From a virus, in IMG/VR virus record IMGVR_UViG_3300037088_000789, positions 1 to 24,796 of that record: a stretch of 24,796 nucleotides of DNA; one strand, written 5' to 3'. This document shows positions 7,944-22,611 of the stretch, one piece after another; the first letter of the stretch is position 1, and each line of letters starts with the position of its first letter. The notes beneath the pieces were generated by a model. The model made no database searches. It had not been told where the DNA came from and saw nothing but the letters and a program-made list of their open reading frames with translations. The position numbers and the translations under genes are program-made.

Positions 7944-8234
7944 TTATTTATTATTTTCTTCATTATTTTTTTGATCAAGTTTATAGACTCTTACTGCAAC
8001 AGCAGCATCTTCCATTAATTTAATACTTTCGTTCTGCTCCAAAATAATAGTCAGTCTAAGTTCTATTTTTTCTTTATCTTCTTTGAGGACACCTGTTTTA
8101 ATTAAAGTGACTAAATCCTCAAGAGTTTCATCACGCTTTTTCTTTGCAAGTTCAATAGCCAGCATCAAATCAGAATCAATTGGTATATCCAATGAAAATT
8201 CATATTTGCCGATCTTCTTAAACTTCGTATCCAT
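7944..8234 (-). CDS. Small helical protein, paralog of its downstream neighbour (96 aa)
   Basis: The 96-aa protein has a short beta start (KKIGKYEFSLDIPID) then helices (LMLAIELAKKKRDETLEDLV, LRLTIILEQNESIKLMEDA). The helical part matches the next gene in residue pattern and spacing. Its ATG overlaps the thymidylate synthase stop by one base (TAATG), so it is translationally coupled to that gene. No function is recognised. Confidence 0.65.
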   Translation of the reverse strand: MDTKFKKIGKYEFSLDIPIDSDLMLAIELAKKKRDETLEDLVTLIKTGVLKEDKEKIELRLTIILEQNESIKLMEDAAVAVRVYKLDQKNNEENNK

Positions 8235-9319
8235 TATAATTTCTTATATCCTGTAAATAGTTCAGCATCAATTTTTGGATGTGACACATATCCTTTTAAT
8301 TTAAAATCATCAATAGTTAATGCCAGTATATCATCCAAACTTTTTAATTCTTTGTCAATTATCATATATGGTAAATCGTATGGTGTTCTTTTGATTTGCA
8401 TTTTTGCAATTGAAATATGATTTACATATAAATGTGTGTCACCACCAATCCATGCAGCTACACCCTCTTTCATATTACTTGCTTTTGCGATAATCATTAG
8501 AAGTAATGACATGCTGGCAAGATTGAATGGTACACCAAGAAGTGTATCACATGATCTTTGATACATGTTTAAATCCAGATAAAATTTAGGTACACTTAAT
8601 TCATCAAATGCCTTGGTAACTCTATCAATGTTGTCAAAGTTTAATCTCATACCGTGATTAAGTCTTGCATATTCATTGTGCCTTTGATCAAATGTCATGG
8701 GTCTTACAATAAATTGATAAAGCAAATGACATGGTGGAAGTGCCATATCTTTAAAATCAGCAGCATTCCATGCATTGATGATATGGTAACGACTGTATGG
8801 ATTTTCTTTAAGACCGTCAATAACTTTTTTAACCTGATCAACACCATTTTGTTTTCTCCATTGGAAACCGTATACTTTACCTAAATCACCCAAAAAATAT
8901 AGAAACACAACTGAACCAAGTTCTTCAGGCTTAACGCCTTGAGATTTTTTAGTAAATTTATCTAAATGACCTGCCTTTATTGTTTCAATAAATTCTTCTA
9001 TTGAAAATCTATCTTCTTCAGCAATGCCCATTCCATCACAATATCTCAAATACCAACGATATGCATCACCGTTCCAAATATTCACGTTATTATCAACCAA
9101 ATATTTAATGTTTGTATCTCCCCTGAGAATCCAAAGTAATTCATGAATAATACCTTTCCAGAACATTTTCTTTGTAGTAAGAAGAGGAAATCCCTCTTGC
9201 AAATCCATTTCAATCATAGCACGTGATATACCAATTGTATTAGGCATATTGGCTCTGCCACTTTCCTTCTCAACACCATTATCAATAATGTTTTGAAGTA
9301 AATTTAAATACTGTTTCAT
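8234..9319 (-). CDS. thyA: Thymidylate synthase (ThyA type, atypical)
   Basis: The 361-aa enzyme would methylate dUMP to dTMP using methylene-tetrahydrofolate. It has FPLLTTK (44-50), the ELLWILRGDTN helix (60-70), the catalytic ALPPCH with Cys197, QRSC (254-257), GVPFN with Asn266 (the dUMP-selecting Asn) and GGDTHLYVNH (292-301). It is longer than E. coli ThyA (264 aa) because of insertions before Gly-Phe-Gln-Trp and between CHLLYQF and MYQRSC (about residues 204-250). Two positions are unusual. The phosphate-binding pair usually read as Arg-Arg is Arg177-Tyr178, and the RTGTGT loop reads RANMPNT. The Asn argues against dCMP hydroxymethylase. It sits 12 nt after a small basic gene. Confidence 0.93.
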   Translation of the reverse strand: MKQYLNLLQNIIDNGVEKESGRANMPNTIGISRAMIEMDLQEGFPLLTTKKMFWKGIIHELLWILRGDTNIKYLVDNNVNIWNGDAYRWYLRYCDGMGIAEEDRFSIEEFIETIKAGHLDKFTKKSQGVKPEELGSVVFLYFLGDLGKVYGFQWRKQNGVDQVKKVIDGLKENPYSRYHIINAWNAADFKDMALPPCHLLYQFIVRPMTFDQRHNEYARLNHGMRLNFDNIDRVTKAFDELSVPKFYLDLNMYQRSCDTLLGVPFNLASMSLLLMIIAKASNMKEGVAAWIGGDTHLYVNHISIAKMQIKRTPYDLPYMIIDKELKSLDDILALTIDDFKLKGYVSHPKIDAELFTGYKKL

Positions 9320-12627: not shown

Positions 12628-13459
12628 TGTAAGTATTTGTCTTATAAACGTAAGTATTACCGCTTGGTGGATTCTGTTGTAAATTATCCATGTTTGCCAC
12701 TGTATTATTGACCTTATCAACAAATAATGTGTTGTTAATAACTTCTTTTGCTGTTATTGTGGGATATGATGTAGTTAAGAATTTCCATGTCATATTGCTT
12801 CGGTCTAATTGTGCTTTGAAAAACAAATATTCTGGAGTTGTTAAACTTGCATTGTCATTATTAAAAAATGTTGTCACTTTTCCTGTCTTTGCATTAAAGA
12901 AACTAAATTTTACATATCCTGTCATTGTTGTACCACTAAAATATGATATCGGCACATACCAACGATAAAATTGATTATTATTGGTTGCACCAATTGTATA
13001 TGAAGGTACTTTATTTAATTTAGTTAAATATGTTGTAAATATTTTTGTTTGACTATTGATGTCGAAAGTATTGTAATAATCTAAAATAAAAAAACTATTA
13101 AGTACATTGAGATTATTATTATTAATTTCATTAGATGTAAAACCAGCAGCAGTAAATAATGTTTGATATGTAGTTGCGGTTACATTATAAAATTGAAATA
13201 TAAGTGTTATATTAGCACTTGGATTAGGATTTAATTTAAACCTTTTTTCTTCACCGTCAATTACAGGATTAACTAAGTCAAGTGTGGTGAATTGAGTTAA
13301 TCTGTCAATTTCTTGCTGATATTCAATTAAATTATCAGTTGAACTTAATGAAATTCTTAAATTCATTGTAGTACCAGTAAAGCCAGTAGTGCCAGTAGTG
13401 CCACCAGTAAGTTTAACCAAACTATTATTAAATCTTATTTTTTCTCTGATTATAGACAT
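12617..13459 (-). CDS. Tail or baseplate structural protein (280 aa)
   Basis: A Thr/Asn-rich, beta-rich 280-aa protein typical of phage tail fibre or baseplate components. Near residues 19-31 it has a brief Gly-X-X stretch (GGTTGTTGFTGTT), too short to be a real collagen repeat. Aromatic-rich strands follow (QFYRWYVPISYF, YVKFSFFNAK), with ISMS-like ends absent. No enzymatic motif is visible. It overlaps the upstream gene by 10 nt, so the two are probably expressed and assembled together. Confidence 0.65.
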   Translation of the reverse strand: MSIIREKIRFNNSLVKLTGGTTGTTGFTGTTMNLRISLSSTDNLIEYQQEIDRLTQFTTLDLVNPVIDGEEKRFKLNPNPSANITLIFQFYNVTATTYQTLFTAAGFTSNEINNNNLNVLNSFFILDYYNTFDINSQTKIFTTYLTKLNKVPSYTIGATNNNQFYRWYVPISYFSGTTMTGYVKFSFFNAKTGKVTTFFNNDNASLTTPEYLFFKAQLDRSNMTWKFLTTSYPTITAKEVINNTLFVDKVNNTVANMDNLQQNPPSGNTYVYKTNTYIIS

Positions 13460-14607
13460 GGCTTTCCAATGTTATTAATATCACTAATTGGTTTTTTTGT
13501 TAAATTTGTGGCATATCTGCTATACCATACTTCTGCAAATGCTGCAAGTGTAGTTGGGTCGTTCAGGTCTGGCACAACATCCAATATTATATTTGAAAAC
13601 AGATATCTTTTTTTATTTACAAAAGGATAATTAACACCCAGATTGGTTGTTGGGTCGGTATAACCTTGTGCTAAAATATCTCTCCAAACAAAATTATTGT
13701 TACCAATTGGTGTTGCATAATATGGTATTGCAGTTGTTTGATCGTATGATGTACTACCAGTGCTTACTTGATTTAATTCGCTTGCAAAATATCTTAATTG
13801 AAGTGAAATAAATGGATTATATCTCCATACTAAGCGTTGACTATAATTATTAAGGTCTTTATATGGTGTTATTATTTTAAATGTTTGTGGAGTTGATTCT
13901 ACCTGAAGAAAATCCTCTTTTGAATATTCGATTAAATCACCAATCTTAACTCCGAAGGTTGACTGTACTGTTTCACCACTAATTAATGTTGCTGGTGCAA
14001 ATGAAAACGGTATTGCTACTCCTGTTGTTGACCACGTAGTGCCTGATAACATTTCAATAGGATTTGTACTTGGTATGTATTGTGCATATAAAAACAATTC
14101 AGTTAAAGGAAAATTGAAATTATCTAATAATCCAGAAACATTAAAATCTTTGTTGAAATTAAAAGCATACGCCTGTTCGCCATATACGTTGTTAGAAAAA
14201 CCAGCAGGAAATATTTCAAATTCATTTGGTGTTGCAATTACCTGAAAATATCTAACATATTTGATACTACTTCCAGCACTTGTATATCCACTCGTTGCAG
14301 GTCTGACAAGGTAAAAATTAAATGAATTAAGAAGGTTTTTACTGTTGATTAATTGTGGATTAAAAAAGTCTGAAAATTTGGTGTAATTATTTATTAATCC
14401 ATTCAAAAGTGACATGTATTCAATTTTACCATAGATTCTGTAGTCTTCATATGCTTCTCTTTCAGCATCGAATATTTCTGTGGCACTCAAAATGTTTCTG
14501 ATATCATATTCATTTATCGCACCTACTTTACGTATTAGTTCGACCTTTTCGTAATTATCAACATTGACCGAATGTACGTTTTTCAGACTATTAAGTAATA
14601 TCTCCAC
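13450..14607 (-). CDS. Tail or baseplate structural protein (385 aa)
   Basis: The frame begins with GTG at 14605-14607 (read as Met); no in-frame ATG occurs soon after it, and a purine-rich AAAGGA lies about 9 nt upstream. The N-terminal 70 residues are helical and charged (KVELIRKVGAINEYDIRNIL, DAEREAYEDY); the rest is beta-rich with many Asn, Thr, Phe and Tyr, typical of virion proteins. Late expression is indicated by the GTATTTAT element at 14623-14630. Its exact position in the virion cannot be told; a baseplate or fibre role fits its location next to sheath and spike genes. Confidence 0.68.
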   Translation of the reverse strand: MEILLNSLKNVHSVNVDNYEKVELIRKVGAINEYDIRNILSATEIFDAEREAYEDYRIYGKIEYMSLLNGLINNYTKFSDFFNPQLINSKNLLNSFNFYLVRPATSGYTSAGSSIKYVRYFQVIATPNEFEIFPAGFSNNVYGEQAYAFNFNKDFNVSGLLDNFNFPLTELFLYAQYIPSTNPIEMLSGTTWSTTGVAIPFSFAPATLISGETVQSTFGVKIGDLIEYSKEDFLQVESTPQTFKIITPYKDLNNYSQRLVWRYNPFISLQLRYFASELNQVSTGSTSYDQTTAIPYYATPIGNNNFVWRDILAQGYTDPTTNLGVNYPFVNKKRYLFSNIILDVVPDLNDPTTLAAFAEVWYSRYATNLTKKPISDINNIGKPCL

Positions 14608-14622
14608 TATTTTTCCTTTACT

Positions 14623-14630
14623 ATAAATAC
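14623..14630 (-). promoter_or_regulatory. GTATTTAT late-promoter-like element (minus)
   Basis: ATAAATAC on the plus strand reads GTATTTAT on the minus strand and ends 15 nt before the GTG start at 14607. It supports that start and gives the 13450-14607/12617-13459 pair a late promoter. Confidence 0.6.
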
Positions 14631-14661
14631 CTTAAAATTTTTTTATGATTTTTGTAACCTT

Positions 14662-14694
14662 TTTGAAACTACATACGTATAAGCTATATGTTTA
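14662..14694 (+). promoter_or_regulatory. Host-type promoter for the lipoprotein gene
   Basis: TTTG (14662-14665), a 21-nt spacer and TATGTTTA (14687-14694) nearly match the Bacteroidota TTTG/TAnnTTTG pattern, differing only in the last base. Transcription would start about 15 nt before the ATG at 14715. No GTATTTAT element faces this gene, unlike its structural neighbours. Confidence 0.55.
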
Positions 14695-14714
14695 ACCGAT
14701 AAAAAATTAAAATT

Positions 14715-15206
14715 ATGAAAAAATTATTTTACATTTCGACTTTGATCTTTGCGCTGGTACTTATGAACACCAGTTGCGAAAAACAGAATGACACTCCTGA
14801 CGACCCTTCAACTGCATTAATTACTCTCAGTGAATTGAATGGTACTTGGAATTTTCAATTACTTCAGTATGCTGGTCTTACTCCTGATGTTACTCCAGCC
14901 ACTACTCAGGCACAATTAAATCTCAACCCTATTACAAAAAGCATGCGTTGGATTAATCTTAGCCTGAAAATCACAGTAAATGGTATTGCAGTATGTGATT
15001 TAATTGATGCGTTTGATAATCCAGTAAATGGTAATGGTTTGGAATTGAACACGACAACTAATATTATTACCCTTGATAATGGTCTGGAGTTTCAAGTTCT
15101 TAGTTACGATAAGACCACTAAGATACTTAAAGCTAAATTAATTGCACCAGTAAAAACTACTGATAATGTCCTTGATGGTGCAACCTACACATTCAAAAAA
15201 CAATAA
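14715..15206 (+). CDS. Outer-membrane-type lipoprotein (moron candidate)
   Basis: The 163-aa protein has a lipoprotein signal: MKKLFYISTLIFALVLMNTS then Cys21 (lipobox MNTSC). The residues after it (EKQNDTPDD) are acidic, resembling the lipoprotein export signal that sends Bacteroidota lipoproteins to the cell surface. The mature domain starts LITLSELNGTWNFQLLQY and is beta-rich, similar in style to lipocalin-like lipoproteins of this phylum. It has a host-type promoter and its own terminator and sits alone between opposite-strand structural genes, the pattern of a moron expressed independently. A role in altering the host surface or excluding other phages is inference. Confidence 0.8.
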   Translation: MKKLFYISTLIFALVLMNTSCEKQNDTPDDPSTALITLSELNGTWNFQLLQYAGLTPDVTPATTQAQLNLNPITKSMRWINLSLKITVNGIAVCDLIDAFDNPVNGNGLELNTTTNIITLDNGLEFQVLSYDKTTKILKAKLIAPVKTTDNVLDGATYTFKKQ

Positions 15207-15217
15207 TTAATTATAAT

Positions 15218-15244
15218 AAAAAAACCCTCAATTGAGGGTTTTTT
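15218..15244. terminator. Bidirectional terminator between lipoprotein and 709-aa tail gene
   Basis: CCCTC (15225-15229), AATT loop and GAGGG (15234-15238) are flanked by seven A (15218-15224) and six T (15239-15244). The symmetry serves both convergent genes. Confidence 0.9.
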
Positions 15245-15247
15245 GTT

Positions 15248-17377
15248 TTACACAAGTCCAAGCGAAATTAAGTATTCGATACAGTTTGATGTTTTATATC
15301 CTTTATAAAAATATGTTCTTGGGTCAGTACCATTTGTTGGAACTGCATTTGTTTTACCTCCTTTATATGGACATGCTGTTGTTACCCATGCTCCTGATGG
15401 TATATATGAACCATTACGATATTTGCCAGTAAGGGTATATGGTAAATCAGTATTATTATCTTTAAAACCTTTACTTGATACTTGATTAATTGCCAACAAA
15501 TCCCGTTTTGGTACTTCGATAAAGTCTGTCCAATGCAAGTCACTACGTGCAAACCATTTTGTATTAAAATCCCCAGCAGCAATTTTCTGTGTGTTATCTT
15601 TATTAAAAAATTCATTATATGCTGCCTGACCTTTCATGCTTGGATGAAAGTTATCTGTGCCTCTAACATCTTTTATGTATGAATATCCTGCAGCTAAAAA
15701 TCCAACTTGTGGAAAATACACACTAAAATTCATCCATTGAGCACCAAATGATTGAAAGTTATTTAATGCAGCAGCATTTGATGGAAATTCATATTGATCT
15801 GAGATATCAACATCATTAATTGTACCAGTTATAATTGCACCAACATTCCAAAATAAATCTAAAGTACCAACATAATTTACTGCTGTATAATGTAAAAAGT
15901 TTGGAAATATCCCATCCTGAAATTGTTTATCATCGTCACCTTCATATCCGTTTTGAGTTGTGCCATGAAATTTTGCCACACTATATATTGTACCACCACT
16001 GAAAATCTTATGTTCTCTTCTCCAGAGTGAAGTTGATATGTCAACACCCCCAAAGTCATTTGCTAATGAATTACCTGCTGGACTCATTTGTGGAAACTTA
16101 TATTTATATCTATATGGTTCTACTCTGGTATTATTTCCAATACTACCAGTAAAGTTCATTGGTATATCTTCATTAGTTATTTCAAGAGTCATAAAACCTC
16201 TAAATCTTGTATATATGCCATCTACTGAATTTTCAGATACTGGAGTTTCATTTCCAAATTCATCAGTAATAATTTTATTGCGATTACAACTTATAATAAA
16301 AACAAAATCACCATCCCTTTTATATGAAGAATATTGTGTAGGGTCTAATATTTTCATTGCAGTTATAGGGTCAGGAGAAGTAGAGAGAAGTGGATTAATG
16401 GCAAGCATTGTATCTGTAATTTCAGGCGGATAATAATAAATTTTTTCTGTTACCTTGCCAGTTCTTTTCGCTATCATTGTTTCATTGGTTTCTGCTGGGT
16501 CTCTGATGCGCCACATTTCAGCAATATATCGACTACTGCTATGATCAAAACCCCACATAGCGTTATCACCATCTGTAAATGCGCTACCAAAAATAACAAA
16601 AGTATTATTAAGGACTGAACGAATTCTAAAATCCTGACGAGTTATACCGATAGTGAAATTTGTAGTATCTCCCCAAAATGGCGCAATATCAACACTAATT
16701 TCTTGTGTTTCAATATTTGGTAAGTCGCCTAAATCATTACTTGGTTTAATTTTACTGCCAACAAATAAGTTTGGTGAGTATCCTAAGTTTGTAACCATAG
16801 CAGCAGGATTCATGCTGTATTTTCCAATATCTGTAATATCAACACTTAGATGAACAGTTTGTGTGCCTGTAGGTACACCAAAGATCATATAGTCGCCAGC
16901 ATTATTTGTTAATGCAGTATATTTATAATACTTTTTATATACATTGAGAAATTCTAAGTTGGTTACAAGTTCTGGTTTAATTGGAAATGAACCAAAAGGT
17001 TGTTTTGGTGATGAAACTCCTGTGTTTGGGTCAATCTGAGAAACACGTGGCAATAAATTATATCTTTTACCGTCATTATTTTTATCTGTTGGATTTACAT
17101 AAGGATATATGCTGGCAATTTCACCAATATTTGCATCAGTATCGCTTAATGGTATAAAGATACTTATTTTTGCGTTAGGTATACCAACACCGCCATTTGC
17201 AATTACTCTTCCCACCAATACACCATAATCTGCATTAAAATCCTGATATACGTCATTAATACCAAGGGTCATGGAAAGAAATTCAAGCGTATCAACTTCC
17301 TGATCAAGTTTAACTAATATGTGACTATCTGTAGATGGAATATTAGGATTAATAGGAATACGTTGTGATTTATTCAT
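15248..17377 (-). CDS. Large tail/baseplate protein with carboxypeptidase-regulatory-like domain (709 aa)
   Basis: I start this at ATG 17375-17377 (MNKSQRIPINPNIPSTDSHI). The frame stays open upstream to 17521, but that part is low-complexity Phe/Lys-rich and lies above the late-promoter-like element. Residues 52-185 form a carboxypeptidase-regulatory (CNA-B-like) beta sandwich: VLVGRVIANGGVGIPNAKISIFIPL, then a long insertion, then TNNAGDYMIFGVPTGTQTVHL. This domain type occurs in tail proteins of several Bacteroidota phages. The rest is a large Asn/Gly/aromatic-rich virion-like protein with many aligned Phe-Trp motifs. It is probably a tail-tip or baseplate adhesin; partner and ligand are unknown. 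Confidence 0.78.
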   Translation of the reverse strand: MNKSQRIPINPNIPSTDSHILVKLDQEVDTLEFLSMTLGINDVYQDFNADYGVLVGRVIANGGVGIPNAKISIFIPLSDTDANIGEIASIYPYVNPTDKNNDGKRYNLLPRVSQIDPNTGVSSPKQPFGSFPIKPELVTNLEFLNVYKKYYKYTALTNNAGDYMIFGVPTGTQTVHLSVDITDIGKYSMNPAAMVTNLGYSPNLFVGSKIKPSNDLGDLPNIETQEISVDIAPFWGDTTNFTIGITRQDFRIRSVLNNTFVIFGSAFTDGDNAMWGFDHSSSRYIAEMWRIRDPAETNETMIAKRTGKVTEKIYYYPPEITDTMLAINPLLSTSPDPITAMKILDPTQYSSYKRDGDFVFIISCNRNKIITDEFGNETPVSENSVDGIYTRFRGFMTLEITNEDIPMNFTGSIGNNTRVEPYRYKYKFPQMSPAGNSLANDFGGVDISTSLWRREHKIFSGGTIYSVAKFHGTTQNGYEGDDDKQFQDGIFPNFLHYTAVNYVGTLDLFWNVGAIITGTINDVDISDQYEFPSNAAALNNFQSFGAQWMNFSVYFPQVGFLAAGYSYIKDVRGTDNFHPSMKGQAAYNEFFNKDNTQKIAAGDFNTKWFARSDLHWTDFIEVPKRDLLAINQVSSKGFKDNNTDLPYTLTGKYRNGSYIPSGAWVTTACPYKGGKTNAVPTNGTDPRTYFYKGYKTSNCIEYLISLGLV

Positions 17378-17393
17378 ACAAATTTTCTTTCTG

Positions 17394-17401
17394 ATAAATA
17401 C
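17394..17401 (-). promoter_or_regulatory. GTATTTAT late-promoter-like element (minus)
   Basis: The octamer, preceded by TTA on the minus strand, ends 16 nt before the ATG at 17377. It decides the start of the 709-aa gene. Confidence 0.65.
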
Positions 17402-17610
17402 TAACAGTAAGAATTTCTTATGTCTACTGAAATTATTTTCAAAAAAAATGAAAAATTTTTTTAATAAAATTCTGAGAAATTTAAGATAAAAAAATCGAAA
17501 TTTTTGAAAATCTGACCCCAAAAGATGAAAAAAGTTAAAGATTTGATTTTATGAGCAAGAACAGCAACAAGATAATAATTAATCTTAAATACCTTTTCAA
17601 GTATTTTTTA
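17402..17610. other. AT-rich spacer between divergent late units
   Basis: Between the two divergent late-promoter-like elements there is no convincing gene; only very short frames occur. The stretch is A/T-rich with several poly-A and poly-T runs and a second, imperfect GTATTTTT at 17601-17608 next to the sheath promoter. Nothing else structured is seen. Confidence 0.5.
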
Positions 17611-17618
17611 GTATTTAT
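17611..17618 (+). promoter_or_regulatory. GTATTTAT late-promoter-like element for the sheath gene
   Basis: TTAGTATTTAT ends 62 nt before the sheath ATG, the longest leader in the set, and is followed by an A-rich leader. A near copy (GTATTTTT) lies 10 nt upstream. Confidence 0.65.
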
Positions 17619-17680
17619 TTGAAAAGTAACGCAGAACTTATATAAGAAAATAATAATAAAAACATTAATAATTAATAAAC

Positions 17681-20467
17681 ATGGCAGATTTTGTATTTAC
17701 CTCTCCGGGTGTAAAATTTAAAGAAAGAGATTTGACTTTCGTAACACGTAATGTAGGTATTACCACATTAGGTTTAGTTGGCGAAACAACGAAAGGACCT
17801 GCTTTTCAACCTGTATACTTACAGGATGCTACACAGTATTCAAATAGATTTGGTGTTCAAAGCACTGAAAAACTATCTAATGGTACATTACGTTATCAAT
17901 TACCTTATGTAGCCAATTCATATTTACAGGAAACCAATCAATTGTATGTAACAAGAGTATTGGGTCTTTCTGGATATGATGCTGGCAAAGCATGGGCAAT
18001 TACATTAAGTGCAGGTGTTGACCCTTCAACGGAAGGTGTTGCAAGCGTAGCACCACCAGCAGTAATACCATTTACTGGACAATTTTATTTGGGTGTTGCG
18101 ATAGATATAGTTGGTCAAACGGGCACAGCATTTAGCGGCTTCACTAAAATAGGTGCAATTGATTTCCAAGGTGTTTCACACGCATTTACCGTTCTCACCA
18201 TAGCAGTTGGTGGGGGTGTTATAACTGGTGGTACTGTCAGTGATGTTTTAACAACATTAACAGGTACATCATATAGTGAATATGAAGGTATGGTACTTGC
18301 AGTTGTTAGAAGTAGAGCTAATGTACATCCACATGCTAATTTACCTCCTACAACAGTGTTTAATACACAAACAGTTACTATGACAGGAAATACCACTAAT
18401 ATTGGTACTGGTGATATGTTTGGACAATTTGCTTTAAAAGCAGTTGGTACTGGTGGAACTCAAAACTATACAGCATCCTTAAATCCAGATGCAAGTAGCT
18501 TTTTACCAAATGTAATTGGTCAAAGTGCAAAAGATAAAAACACTATGTTATGGGTTCAGGCAGCATATCCTGATTTAATTAAATGGTTGGATTCTGAAGG
18601 TTATGGATACGGTCTTAATACAACATTGATCACTGCAACAACTGGTTTATATACAAATTATAAATCAATCTTCCAGACACCTGAAACTCCTTGGGTAGTA
18701 TCACAATTAAAAGGTAGTGAAGTTGACAGATTATTTAAATTTGTTAGCATTTCTGACGGTGATGCAGCTAACCAAGAAATTAAGATTAGCATTGAAAATA
18801 TTAATCCAATTTCTCTTGAATTTGACGTTTATGTTCGTGCATTTTACGATACAGATGCAAATCCAGTGGTATTAGAAAATTATGTAAGAGTTAGTTTGAT
18901 CAAAGGTCAGACAAACTATATTGCACAAATGATTGGTTCGACTGATGGTGAGTATGACATTCAAAGCAACTATATTATGATTGAACTTGCTAAAGATATT
19001 TCTCCCGATTTATTCCCTGCAGGTTTCGAAGGTTATGAATTCAATAATTACGGTACTGGTGTTACTGGTTCTGTAGTTAAGGGTGTAACTCCAAAAATCG
19101 TTTATAAAACAAAATATGTACAAGGTGATAAGATCAGAAAAGTATTCTTGGGTATATCAGAAAACGCATATAGCACAACAAATATAATTGGAACTGGCAT
19201 TAATCAGAATTTCTTCAATTTTATTAATTGGAGAGACGATTCAAGTAACGTTGCTTCAGGTTTTACAAAAACCAAAGGATTCCATATGGATTCAGGTGCA
19301 ACTGGTACATATGTACAGGGTATTACTGATATTGGTCAATTTGAAGTTGGTGCTGGTCAATTCCAGACAATAGATAACGTTGTTGACCCAACAAATCCAT
19401 ATTATGATATTAATACAAGAAAATTCACTCTTGTACCTGCTGGCGGTTTCGATGGTTGGGACGTTAATAATGGATATAATAATGGTATATTCCACACATA
19501 TGGCGATTTATATCGTCAGGGTGGAGTGTTTGATGGCGTTGCTCCGGGCGTTGTTCCAATGAACGACTTCCAAGCATGGGAAACAGCAATTCAAACATAT
19601 TCAAATCCTGAAGAAGTAACAATCAATTTATTTGCAACTCCGGGTATCAATTGGTCAGATCAGACAGTTATGGTTCAAGACACTATCGAAATGGTTGAAC
19701 AACAAAGAGCAGATACATTATATGTAATCGATGCTCCACTTATTGGAAATCCACAAGCAGTTGGTCAACCAAAACAAGATGTTCAATTTGCAAGTGATGT
19801 TGTTGATTTACTTGCTGCAGCCGATCTTGATAGCAGCTATTCATGTACATACTTCCCTTGGATTCAGATAAGGGATACACAGAACAATGTTAACGTTTAT
19901 ATTCCACCTACAGGTGAAGTAGTTAAAGCAATGGCATTTACTGATAACGTTGCATTCCCTTGGTTCGCACCTGCTGGTTTGAATCGTGGTGTAACTGATG
20001 CAAGAAAATCAATGTTTAAGTTATCACAGCAAGCTCGTGATACTTTATATGCTGGTAGAATTAACCCAATGGCTGACTTTGCAGATGCAGGTACAGCAAT
20101 TTTCGGACAGAAAACATTGCAGGTTAAAGCAAGTGCTCTTGACAGAATCAATGTACGTAGATTACTTCTTCAGATCAAGGTTCTTATTGCTAATATTGCA
20201 ATCAGACTTGTATTCGAACAGGATGATCAAACAACAATTGATCAGTTCATAACAAAGGCAACTCCAGTACTTGATACAATCAAGAGAGAAAGAGGTTTAA
20301 ATGACTTCAGAATCAAAATGGATGCTTCTAATAACACAACTGAAACAAACGACAGAAATGAATTGTACGGTGAGTTATTCTTGAAACCAACACGTTCTGT
20401 TGAATTTATTGGAATCACATTCACAATTACACCTTCTGGTGCATCATTCGCTGACGTTGGCGCATAA
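17681..20467 (+). CDS. Tail sheath protein (gp18-like)
   Basis: The 928-aa protein forms the contractile sheath. Its N-terminus has the sheath signature SPGVKFKERDL...GLVGETTKGPAFQPVYL...YSNRFG (about residues 8-58). Its C-terminus has the conserved FPWFAPAGLNRG, ALDRINVRRLLLQIK and GELFLKPTRSVEFIGITFTITPSGASF. T4 gp18 is about 659 aa. The extra length is concentrated in a Gly/Thr/Val-rich region of about 150 residues after position 105, probably a surface-exposed insertion. It is the largest gene in the window, has its own late-promoter-like element and strong terminator, and is followed by the acidic and tube genes. Confidence 0.95.
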   Translation: MADFVFTSPGVKFKERDLTFVTRNVGITTLGLVGETTKGPAFQPVYLQDATQYSNRFGVQSTEKLSNGTLRYQLPYVANSYLQETNQLYVTRVLGLSGYDAGKAWAITLSAGVDPSTEGVASVAPPAVIPFTGQFYLGVAIDIVGQTGTAFSGFTKIGAIDFQGVSHAFTVLTIAVGGGVITGGTVSDVLTTLTGTSYSEYEGMVLAVVRSRANVHPHANLPPTTVFNTQTVTMTGNTTNIGTGDMFGQFALKAVGTGGTQNYTASLNPDASSFLPNVIGQSAKDKNTMLWVQAAYPDLIKWLDSEGYGYGLNTTLITATTGLYTNYKSIFQTPETPWVVSQLKGSEVDRLFKFVSISDGDAANQEIKISIENINPISLEFDVYVRAFYDTDANPVVLENYVRVSLIKGQTNYIAQMIGSTDGEYDIQSNYIMIELAKDISPDLFPAGFEGYEFNNYGTGVTGSVVKGVTPKIVYKTKYVQGDKIRKVFLGISENAYSTTNIIGTGINQNFFNFINWRDDSSNVASGFTKTKGFHMDSGATGTYVQGITDIGQFEVGAGQFQTIDNVVDPTNPYYDINTRKFTLVPAGGFDGWDVNNGYNNGIFHTYGDLYRQGGVFDGVAPGVVPMNDFQAWETAIQTYSNPEEVTINLFATPGINWSDQTVMVQDTIEMVEQQRADTLYVIDAPLIGNPQAVGQPKQDVQFASDVVDLLAAADLDSSYSCTYFPWIQIRDTQNNVNVYIPPTGEVVKAMAFTDNVAFPWFAPAGLNRGVTDARKSMFKLSQQARDTLYAGRINPMADFADAGTAIFGQKTLQVKASALDRINVRRLLLQIKVLIANIAIRLVFEQDDQTTIDQFITKATPVLDTIKRERGLNDFRIKMDASNNTTETNDRNELYGELFLKPTRSVEFIGITFTITPSGASFADVGA

Positions 20468-21352: not shown

Positions 21353-21841
21353 ATGGCAGAAATGATAAGGGGTATCCCGTTCCAATATGAACCTAAGAGA
21401 GTAAACAGATTCTTTGCTGAATTTGCAGACGAATTAGGTATTGAAGTATGGAAAATCCAGAAATTCAAAAGACCTTCGATGAAGATCAACTCAGTTACAA
21501 TCGATTTCATGAACGAACGTAACTACGTAGCTGGTAGATATAATTGGGAAGAAATGCAATTAACTTTTCTTGACCCGATAGGACCGTCTACATCACAGCA
21601 ACTTATGGAGTGGGTTCGTTTACATGCAGAATCACTCACAGGACGTATGGGTTACGCAGCAGGTTATAAAAAGAACATTCTTTTAAAGGCAGTTGACCCA
21701 ACAGGTGTTGAAGTTGAAAAATGGACATTAGAGCAATGTATGGTAACAGGTATTGACTTCGGTGAAAACAGTTACGAAGAAGATGCATTGACAACTATCC
21801 AACTCACGATACAGCCGTGGCGTTGCATTTTAAATATGTAG
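21353..21841 (+). CDS. Tail tube protein (gp19-like)
   Basis: The 162-aa protein matches the size (T4 gp19 is 163 aa) and layout of phage tail tube proteins. It has KRVNRFFAEF near the start, EVWKIQKFKRPSMK, a central YNWEEMQLTFLDP strand pair, LMEWVRLHAESLTG, a KKNILLKAVDPTGVEVEKWTLEQC segment and a C-terminal beta strand ending QPWRC. It forms the inner tube inside the sheath. Its own promoter element and terminator indicate a separate, probably abundant, transcript. Confidence 0.88.
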   Translation: MAEMIRGIPFQYEPKRVNRFFAEFADELGIEVWKIQKFKRPSMKINSVTIDFMNERNYVAGRYNWEEMQLTFLDPIGPSTSQQLMEWVRLHAESLTGRMGYAAGYKKNILLKAVDPTGVEVEKWTLEQCMVTGIDFGENSYEEDALTTIQLTIQPWRCILNM

Positions 21842-22047: not shown

Positions 22048-22611
22048 TTATAATCTTTTGCTTGTTCTTTGGTTATAATCTTTACGAATTATATCAATTC
22101 CTTTAAGTGTTCTAATATAATCTTGAATTATTTTTAAACCTACATTTCCACCATTTTCACATAAAGAAATTGTACTTCTTGCTGCACTCATTTCTCTTGC
22201 CATATCGTTTTGTGTAAGATTTCTATATAATCTTTCTTTTTTTAAAATTTTTCCAGCGTCTTGTACTACAAGTGACAGAAAATTAAATTTATTTTCATCA
22301 TCATCAGTTCGAATGTTTTGTAACGGTGCTTCAACTAACATAATGTTAAGTAGATCAGGATTTAAGCCATGATAATAATTAATCCAATATTTTTCACGTT
22401 CGGCTAAGTCTTCGATATTATCAACTTCTTCAATAATATCAACTATTGGATATTGCCAATTTTCATTTAATTTTTTAACCCATTCGTTTACTCTATCTGA
22501 ATGTGATGATGAAAGATGTTGAAGTGCTCTTTTAGTTCCAACTGTTGACTTACCTATGTATTGGTAGACATCGTTTCTTGGGTCACGTAGACCATAAATT
22601 ATATTTATCAT
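22048..22611 (-). CDS. GIY-YIG endonuclease with C-terminal XRE-type HTH domain
   Basis: The 187-aa protein joins two domains. Residues 1-95 form a GIY-YIG nuclease: IIYGLRDPR (4-12), YIGKS (18-22) with Arg28 and His32, and the metal-binding Glu in EREKYWINYY (71-80). Residues 115-170 form an XRE/Cro-type helix-turn-helix: ILKKERLYRNLTQNDMAREMSAARSTISLCENG. It probably cleaves DNA at a site chosen by the HTH part, as a freestanding homing-type endonuclease inserted between the tube and nuclease genes. A GTATTTAT element points at it, suggesting it borrowed a phage promoter. A partially regulatory function cannot be excluded. Confidence 0.85.
   Translation of the reverse strand: MINIIYGLRDPRNDVYQYIGKSTVGTKRALQHLSSSHSDRVNEWVKKLNENWQYPIVDIIEEVDNIEDLAEREKYWINYYHGLNPDLLNIMLVEAPLQNIRTDDDENKFNFLSLVVQDAGKILKKERLYRNLTQNDMAREMSAARSTISLCENGGNVGLKIIQDYIRTLKGIDIIRKDYNQRTSKRL

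What the first reader, a model, noticed from the sequence alone, without database searches (positions are those of the whole stretch)
14640..15244. Self-contained lipoprotein moron inside the tail gene cluster
A lipoprotein gene on the plus strand sits between two minus-strand structural units. It has its own near-consensus host-type promoter, a lipobox (Cys21) followed by an acidic stretch, and a bidirectional terminator. No late element faces it. This is the expected form of a cargo gene expressed independently of the phage programme, plausibly altering the host surface or excluding competing phages.
Basis: partly seen in the sequence, partly recalled or inferred. Interest (0 to 1): 0.65.

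Follow-up and report, generated by a model that had tools for sequence, protein, structure and literature searches.

The report
Early-promoter lipoprotein cassette beside tail gene
A large phage of Bacteroidota carries, inside its tail genes, an exchangeable gene for a lipid-anchored envelope protein that is switched on by a phage-specific (not host) early-type promoter and whose type always matches the variable half of the neighbouring tail protein, which suggests, without proving it, that it shuts the infected cell to further phages.

Summary
The gene is real and mostly as described: a plus-strand 163-aa lipoprotein (14715-15206, Cys21) between minus-strand tail-module genes, with a bidirectional terminator and no late promoter facing it. 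The 'host-type promoter' is wrong. The conserved promoter is TGTAAC-N16/17-CGTATAA, an ECF-sigma-type element. It occurs 19-49 times per 320-350 kb relative, in front of rIIA, rIIB, DNA ligase and many small early-like genes, with no hits for the reversed control. It is not enriched in 80 Bacteroidota genomes. The five relatives over 320 kb each encode an ECF sigma factor of one clade. So the gene is inside the phage programme, in its early/middle arm. Across 36 distinct relatives the slot is filled by a lipoprotein (21), another secreted protein (1), or is empty or decayed (14). Two lipocalin-like lipoprotein types track two classes of the variable C-terminal half of the neighbouring protein (19/19, five switches on the sheath tree; an added 12th type-1 locus agrees). 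This resembles T5 Llp beside its receptor-binding protein. I favour early receptor blocking (superinfection exclusion), but the function is untested and physical linkage alone could give the pairing.

The parts
13450..14607 (-). neighbour gene (385 aa), tail module; follows the phage backbone phylogeny, not the lipoprotein type
14623..14630 (-). late-type motif GTATTTAT facing the 385-aa gene, not the lipoprotein
   Evidence: kept in all slot-filled and most slot-empty relatives
14653..14658 (+). ECF-type -35 element TGTAAC
14676..14682 (+). ECF-type -10 element CGTATAA (spacer N17)
14688..14696 (+). ATGTTTAAC, an extra element conserved in many slot lipoprotein leaders but nearly absent at other promoters of this class (2 of 93)
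   Evidence: function unknown
14715..15206 (+). lipoprotein gene, 163 aa; signal peptide 1-20, lipidated Cys21, lipocalin-like mature domain about 32-163
15219..15244 (.). bidirectional intrinsic terminator between the convergent lipoprotein and 715-aa genes
15248..17395 (-). neighbour gene (715 aa): conserved N-terminal ~240 aa, variable C-terminal ~480 aa in two classes; candidate adhesin/receptor-binding protein (inferred from architecture only)

Best explanation
The region is an exchangeable cassette (ECF-type promoter - lipoprotein - bidirectional terminator) placed between two late tail genes of a large myovirus of Bacteroidota. Shown by sequence: the cassette, its conserved phage-specific promoter, its gain, loss and swapping at one site, and the pairing of lipoprotein type with the class of the variable half of the neighbouring 715-aa protein. 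Inferred: a phage-encoded ECF sigma factor directs host RNA polymerase to this promoter early or midway in infection. The lipoprotein goes through Sec and signal peptidase II to the outer membrane, possibly to the surface, as a small lipocalin-like barrel. There it blocks or masks the receptor used by the 715-aa protein, so an infected cell and its debris no longer bind sister or rival phages. The convergent terminator keeps early lipoprotein transcription and late tail transcription apart. Rough probabilities: cassette under a phage ECF-type promoter 0.85; class-B sigma as its activator 0.65; receptor-directed exclusion as the function 0.4.
For: Promoter: TGTAAC-N16/17-CGTA (one or two variant bases at -35 in two loci) in front of all 21 distinct slot lipoproteins; all 20 distinct exact sites in 1.45 Mb of tail-region loci (redundant sequence) lie in this slot, 0 reversed-control hits. 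Genome-wide: 20, 38, 20, 19 and 49 sites in five relatives over 320 kb, 0 control, median 26 nt before an ATG, targets include rIIA, rIIB and DNA ligase. Near-absent in more distant sheath relatives (1 hit, 1 control hit in 1.27 Mb) and at chance in 80 Bacteroidota genomes (9 hits, about 22 control hits). ECF sigma: TIGR02937 at E 1e-28 to 1e-30, SigW/SigM-like, with regions 2 and 4, one clade member in each of the five largest genomes. Pairing: lipoprotein type by leave-one-out HMM 20/20; T1 with alpha, T2 with beta 19/19, five parsimony changes on the sheath tree, 0 of 20,000 independent-evolution simulations at each of five rates, plus L198. Fold: lipocalin-like, best 4qrl Z 8.7; Lipocalin_4 weakly matched by 4/11 T1 and 3/8 T2 members. 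Analogy: T5 Llp adjacent and downstream of RBP pb5, expressed early, blocks FhuA (PMC9586334).
Against: No experiment. The window is a 24.8 kb fragment without a sigma gene, so the activator is inferred from relatives. Fragments of 200-246 kb with 6-19 sites showed only the other sigma class (A) or could not be classed, so class B is not proven universal. L198 has a T1 lipoprotein without the promoter. The lipoprotein and the variable half of the 715-aa gene are adjacent, so co-exchange could be linkage alone. T3 lipoproteins occur with both classes. The 715-aa protein has no recognised fold or family, so 'receptor-binding' is architecture only. The lipoprotein model is of middling confidence (pLDDT 67) with no PDB hit at E<=0.001. 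Llp-type proteins are much smaller and periplasmic.
Confidence: 0.5

Rival explanations
1. An early envelope cargo with another job: for example binding a small ligand or nutrient, countering envelope defence, or stopping DNA entry of a second phage after adsorption. The pairing with the 715-aa class is only genetic linkage.
For: Lipocalin-like barrels often bind small ligands; adjacency explains co-exchange; T3 types occur with both classes and the window/L040 pair swapped type without changing class; a different secreted protein occupies the same slot in L020.
Against: Five co-switches with no T1/T2 mismatch in 20 cases, while the gene on the other side of the lipoprotein follows the backbone.
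Confidence: 0.35
2. A host-acquired moron transcribed by a host ECF sigma factor (envelope stress), so independent of phage regulators.
For: ECF promoters with a CGT -10 box exist in flavobacteria (PMC9723704); the sequence has the general ECF form.
Against: The motif is at chance level in 80 Bacteroidota genomes but 19-49 per phage genome and in front of core early-type phage genes; phages encode their own ECF sigma.
Confidence: 0.1
3. A virion or structural lipoprotein of the tail module, expressed with late genes.
For: Located among tail genes.
Against: Opposite strand, own terminator, no late motif facing it, absent from many relatives with an otherwise intact module.
Confidence: 0.04

Closest known systems
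T5 Llp / Cor and Rtp45 superinfection-exclusion lipoproteins
   Same: Phage lipoprotein; Llp is adjacent and downstream of the receptor-binding protein gene and expressed early (PMC9586334); each blocks the outer-membrane receptor of its own phage (Rtp45: PMC12685063).
   Different: Those are about 6-8 kDa periplasmic proteins of coliphages; here about 15 kDa mature, lipocalin-like, with a possible Bacteroidota surface signal, several exchangeable types, an ECF-type promoter and no sequence relation found. No function test.
Bacteroidota lipocalin-like lipoproteins (Pfam PF13648 Lipocalin_4; PDB 4qrl, 4gzv, 4iab)
   Same: Predicted fold, N-terminal lipoprotein signal; some family members give weak Lipocalin_4 matches.
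   Different: The window protein itself has no Pfam match; solved members are bacterial proteins of unknown or putative sugar-binding function.
Phage-encoded sigma factors with phage-specific promoters (T4 gp55; sigma homologues of RNAP-lacking jumbo phages, PMC13282480)
   Same: Sigma redirects host RNA polymerase to a phage motif; the late motif here (GTATTTAT) is A/T-rich like T4's TATAAATA.
   Different: Here the non-late class is a two-domain ECF factor with a bacterial-style TGTAAC-N16/17-CGTATAA motif serving many early-like genes. The pairing of sigma and motif is inferred.

Membership tests
moron (removable phage cargo gene with own promoter and terminator) | present or absent at one site in close relatives | tested here: met
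   Filled in 22 and empty or decayed in 14 of 36 distinct loci; precise empty site in L004 beside filled L005; decayed promoter in L039, remnant gene in L060
moron (removable phage cargo gene with own promoter and terminator) | own promoter and terminator, opposite strand to neighbours | tested here: met
moron (removable phage cargo gene with own promoter and terminator) | expressed independently of the phage programme | tested here: not met
   The promoter class is phage-specific and genome-wide; by sequence only, no expression data
ECF-sigma-dependent promoter | AAC-type -35, CGT-type -10, 16-17 nt spacer | tested here: met
   TGTAAC-N17-CGTATAA; 93 N16 genome sites give consensus TTGTAAC-N16-CGTATAA
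ECF-sigma-dependent promoter | recognition by an ECF sigma factor | not testable with these tools
   Candidate class-B sigma found in relatives; no sigma gene on the window fragment
Llp/Cor superinfection-exclusion lipoproteins | sequence homology to Llp/Cor | tested here: inconclusive
   No match in the phage collection by tblastn, PHROGs or PDB sequences; the families are small and divergent
Llp/Cor superinfection-exclusion lipoproteins | blocks the phage's own receptor | not testable with these tools
   Needs an adsorption or plating assay
Llp/Cor superinfection-exclusion lipoproteins | gene next to the receptor-binding protein gene, early expression | tested here: inconclusive
   Early-type promoter found; the neighbour has adhesin-like architecture but no recognised fold
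Lipocalin-like lipoprotein (PF13648) | Pfam match over cut-off | tested here: not met
   No match for the window protein; best relative E 2e-4
Lipocalin-like lipoprotein (PF13648) | lipocalin-type beta barrel | tested here: inconclusive
   Model pLDDT 67; best VIA Z 8.7 over 87 residues, rmsd 2.3; Foldseek top E 0.018
Bacteroidota surface-exposed lipoprotein (LES) | C-X-K-(D/E)2 after the lipidated Cys | tested here: not met
   Window has CEKQND; exact in L003, L007, L009, L050, L074

The most novel reading that the evidence does not exclude
A widespread, uncultured lineage of large Bacteroidota phages uses its own ECF sigma factor to run an early regulon on host RNA polymerase. Within this regulon an exchangeable family of lipocalin-like lipoproteins, lodged inside the late tail cluster, is matched to the distal half of the neighbouring tail protein: a modular adhesion-plus-exclusion cassette that lets the phage change receptor and receptor block together.
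Probability: 0.3. Interest if true: 0.78.

Novelty: new variant of a known kind. Interest (0 to 1): 0.6.

Why it matters
It gives a defined, testable promoter (TGTAAC-N16/17-CGTATAA) and a candidate cognate sigma for a phage lineage whose 715-aa tail-module protein has no match among the deposited phage records searched. It also marks the slot between the 715-aa and 385-aa genes as a place to find exclusion proteins matched to tail-adhesin classes, which would help to find receptors of uncultured Bacteroidota phages.

Tried and rejected
No match for the lipoprotein in PHROGs, NCBIfam, Pfam, PDB sequences, deposited phages or IMG/VR by direct search; relatives were found only through neighbouring genes. 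A profile search of 118 Bacteroidota genomes gave one strong hit (E 3.7e-32), in the assembly that holds the phage contig L198, plus eight hits at E 5e-5 to 9e-4, so no clear bacterial donor. Fold search with the 715-aa model gave no PDB match at E<=0.001 and only one uncharacterised viral homologue; a family absent from those lists is not excluded. Host sigma70 and host housekeeping TAnnTTTG reading of the promoter rejected. A loose BLAST clustering (E<0.01, no composition correction) merged T1 and T2; leave-one-out HMMs separate them cleanly. Literature searches for phage-encoded ECF sigma factors and for phage lipoproteins in Bacteroidetes found no direct precedent in the held library, which lacks most subscription journals.

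Full report
WHAT THE WINDOW IS. The window is a 24.8 kb virus fragment. It has a T4-like contractile-tail module: sheath 17681-20467 (phrog_23, E 1.2e-59) and tube 21353-21841 (phrog_4542, E 1.4e-24). Neighbouring proteins find 36 (715-aa protein) and 77 (sheath) loci in IMG/VR, on contigs up to 349 kb. The 715-aa protein has no match in 50,697 deposited phages. Two of the five relatives found in a genome collection are assigned to Bacteroidota assemblies with 54-56% identity, and two promoters in the window have the Bacteroidota housekeeping form TTG-N20-TAnnTTTG (upstream of 4395 and 11790; consensus in PMC9723704). I therefore take the host to be Bacteroidota (inferred).

THE GENE. ORF 14715-15206 encodes 163 aa with a signal peptide and Cys21. 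Homologues sit at the same place in relatives. Invariant positions in the type-1 alignment include Cys21, L41, G43, W45, L138 and Y158. The lipobox is weak by the enterobacterial rule (N at -3). The AlphaFold2 model (11 sequences, pLDDT 67, better from residue 32 on) is lipocalin-like: the best structural match is a Bacteroides uniformis lipocalin-like protein, 4qrl, Z 8.7, 87 residues, rmsd 2.3. Foldseek's best E is 0.018, so this is a lead. Four of 11 type-1 and three of 8 type-2 members match Pfam Lipocalin_4 weakly.

THE PROMOTER IS PHAGE-SPECIFIC AND ECF-LIKE. All 21 distinct slot lipoproteins have T(G/A)(T/C)AAC-N16/17-CGTA 5' of the start; L198, added later, lacks it. In the window the site is TGTAAC 14653-14658, N17, CGTATAA 14676-14682, with 0.00 expected by chance. 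In 1.45 Mb of tail-region loci (redundant) all 20 distinct exact sites lie in this one slot; the reversed pattern gives none. In five relatives over 320 kb there are 20, 38, 20, 19 and 49 sites and no control hits. In the regions fetched from four of them, the sites lie a median 26 nt before an ATG, mostly before small orphan genes in clusters, but also before rIIA, rIIB and an ATP-dependent DNA ligase, which are early genes in T4 (general knowledge). More distant sheath relatives have one hit and one control hit in 1.27 Mb. Eighty Bacteroidota genomes have 9 hits against about 22 control hits. The form (AAC at -35, CGT at -10, 16-17 nt) is that of ECF sigma promoters (known for B. subtilis SigW/SigX, general knowledge; a CGT-box ECF motif is reported in F. 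psychrophilum, PMC9723704).

CANDIDATE SIGMA FACTORS. The relatives encode two sigma classes. Class B (G001, G002, G003, G004, G005; one tree clade) has regions 2 and 4 and matches TIGR02937 sigma70-ECF at E about 1e-28 to 1e-30, nearest SigW/SigM-type models. It lies next to motif clusters, for example G005:185753 before sites 186642-204666, and G004:32966 before 34349-44407. Class A is in other relatives too and is a candidate late sigma. Which sigma reads which motif is inferred. Fragments G006, G008 and G009 have the motif but showed only class A (G007 could not be classed), which is a gap.

THE LATE MOTIF. GTATTTAT occurs 11 times in the window (3.0 expected; none of 100 shuffles as many), 8 of them just before gene starts including sheath, tube, the 715-aa gene and the 385-aa gene. 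It does not face the lipoprotein.

AN EXCHANGEABLE SLOT. Of 36 distinct loci, 21 have a lipoprotein, one another secreted protein, and 14 are empty or decayed. L004 is an empty site next to filled L005; L039 keeps a decayed promoter; L060 keeps the promoter and a remnant of a type-3 gene. The window and L040 share an identical 21-residue N-terminus (signal peptide and Cys) but have unrelated mature parts.

PAIRING WITH THE NEIGHBOUR. The 715-aa protein has a conserved N-terminal ~240 aa and a variable C-terminal ~480 aa in two classes, alpha and beta (tree split supported). Lipoprotein types T1 and T2, which leave-one-out HMMs assign 20/20, match alpha and beta 19/19 on a sheath tree where the class changes at least five times; independent evolution never gave this in 20,000 simulations at each of five rates. 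L198 adds a 20th match. The 385-aa gene on the other side follows the backbone. Linkage of adjacent DNA can produce this without function, and T3 occurs in both classes.

MECHANISM. Shown: cassette structure, promoter class, exchange, pairing. Inferred: class-B sigma activation; early or middle timing; outer-membrane location; receptor blocking. The working analogue is T5 Llp, adjacent and downstream of the receptor-binding protein gene, expressed early, which closes FhuA (PMC9586334); Rtp45 is a second such protein (PMC12685063). It works like these if the exclusion step is right; it is not shown to be a member of their family. The window's own N-terminus does not meet the Capnocytophaga surface signal C-X-K-(D/E)2, though several homologues do (PMC5080379), so surface exposure is uncertain.

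VERDICT. A real, ordinary-looking cargo gene with two less ordinary features: a phage-specific ECF-type early promoter inside a late cluster, and a type-matched partnership with the variable half of a tail protein. New variant of a known kind; interest 0.6.

Noticed in passing
window 14688-14696: ATGTTTAAC just after the -10 box is conserved in many slot lipoprotein leaders but its core TTTAAC is found at 2 of 93 other sites of the same promoter class; possibly a regulator site or leader element.
   Followed up: partly
L002/L038 versus window 15248-20467: This contig has a sheath 99% identical to the window's but a 715-aa protein only about 63% identical: a sharp recombination boundary before the candidate adhesin.
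   Followed up: no
L020 / L072 slot: The slot holds a different secreted 174-aa protein and two ECF-type promoters; the 715-aa protein is class beta.
   Followed up: no
L198 8222-8659: A type-1 lipoprotein in the same slot without the ECF-type promoter; how it is transcribed is unexplained.
   Followed up: partly
window 22048-22611: Protein with a weak GIY-YIG/group I intron endonuclease match and a helix-turn-helix part, inserted between tube and the next gene, with its own late motif.
   Followed up: no
window 8234-9319: Thymidylate synthase of 361 aa whose profile matches fall in two or three stretches, as if it holds an internal insertion.
   Followed up: no
G005:C1:193730 (in L166): A different lipoprotein gene under the same promoter class in the early-like cluster of a relative whose tail slot is empty.
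   Followed up: no
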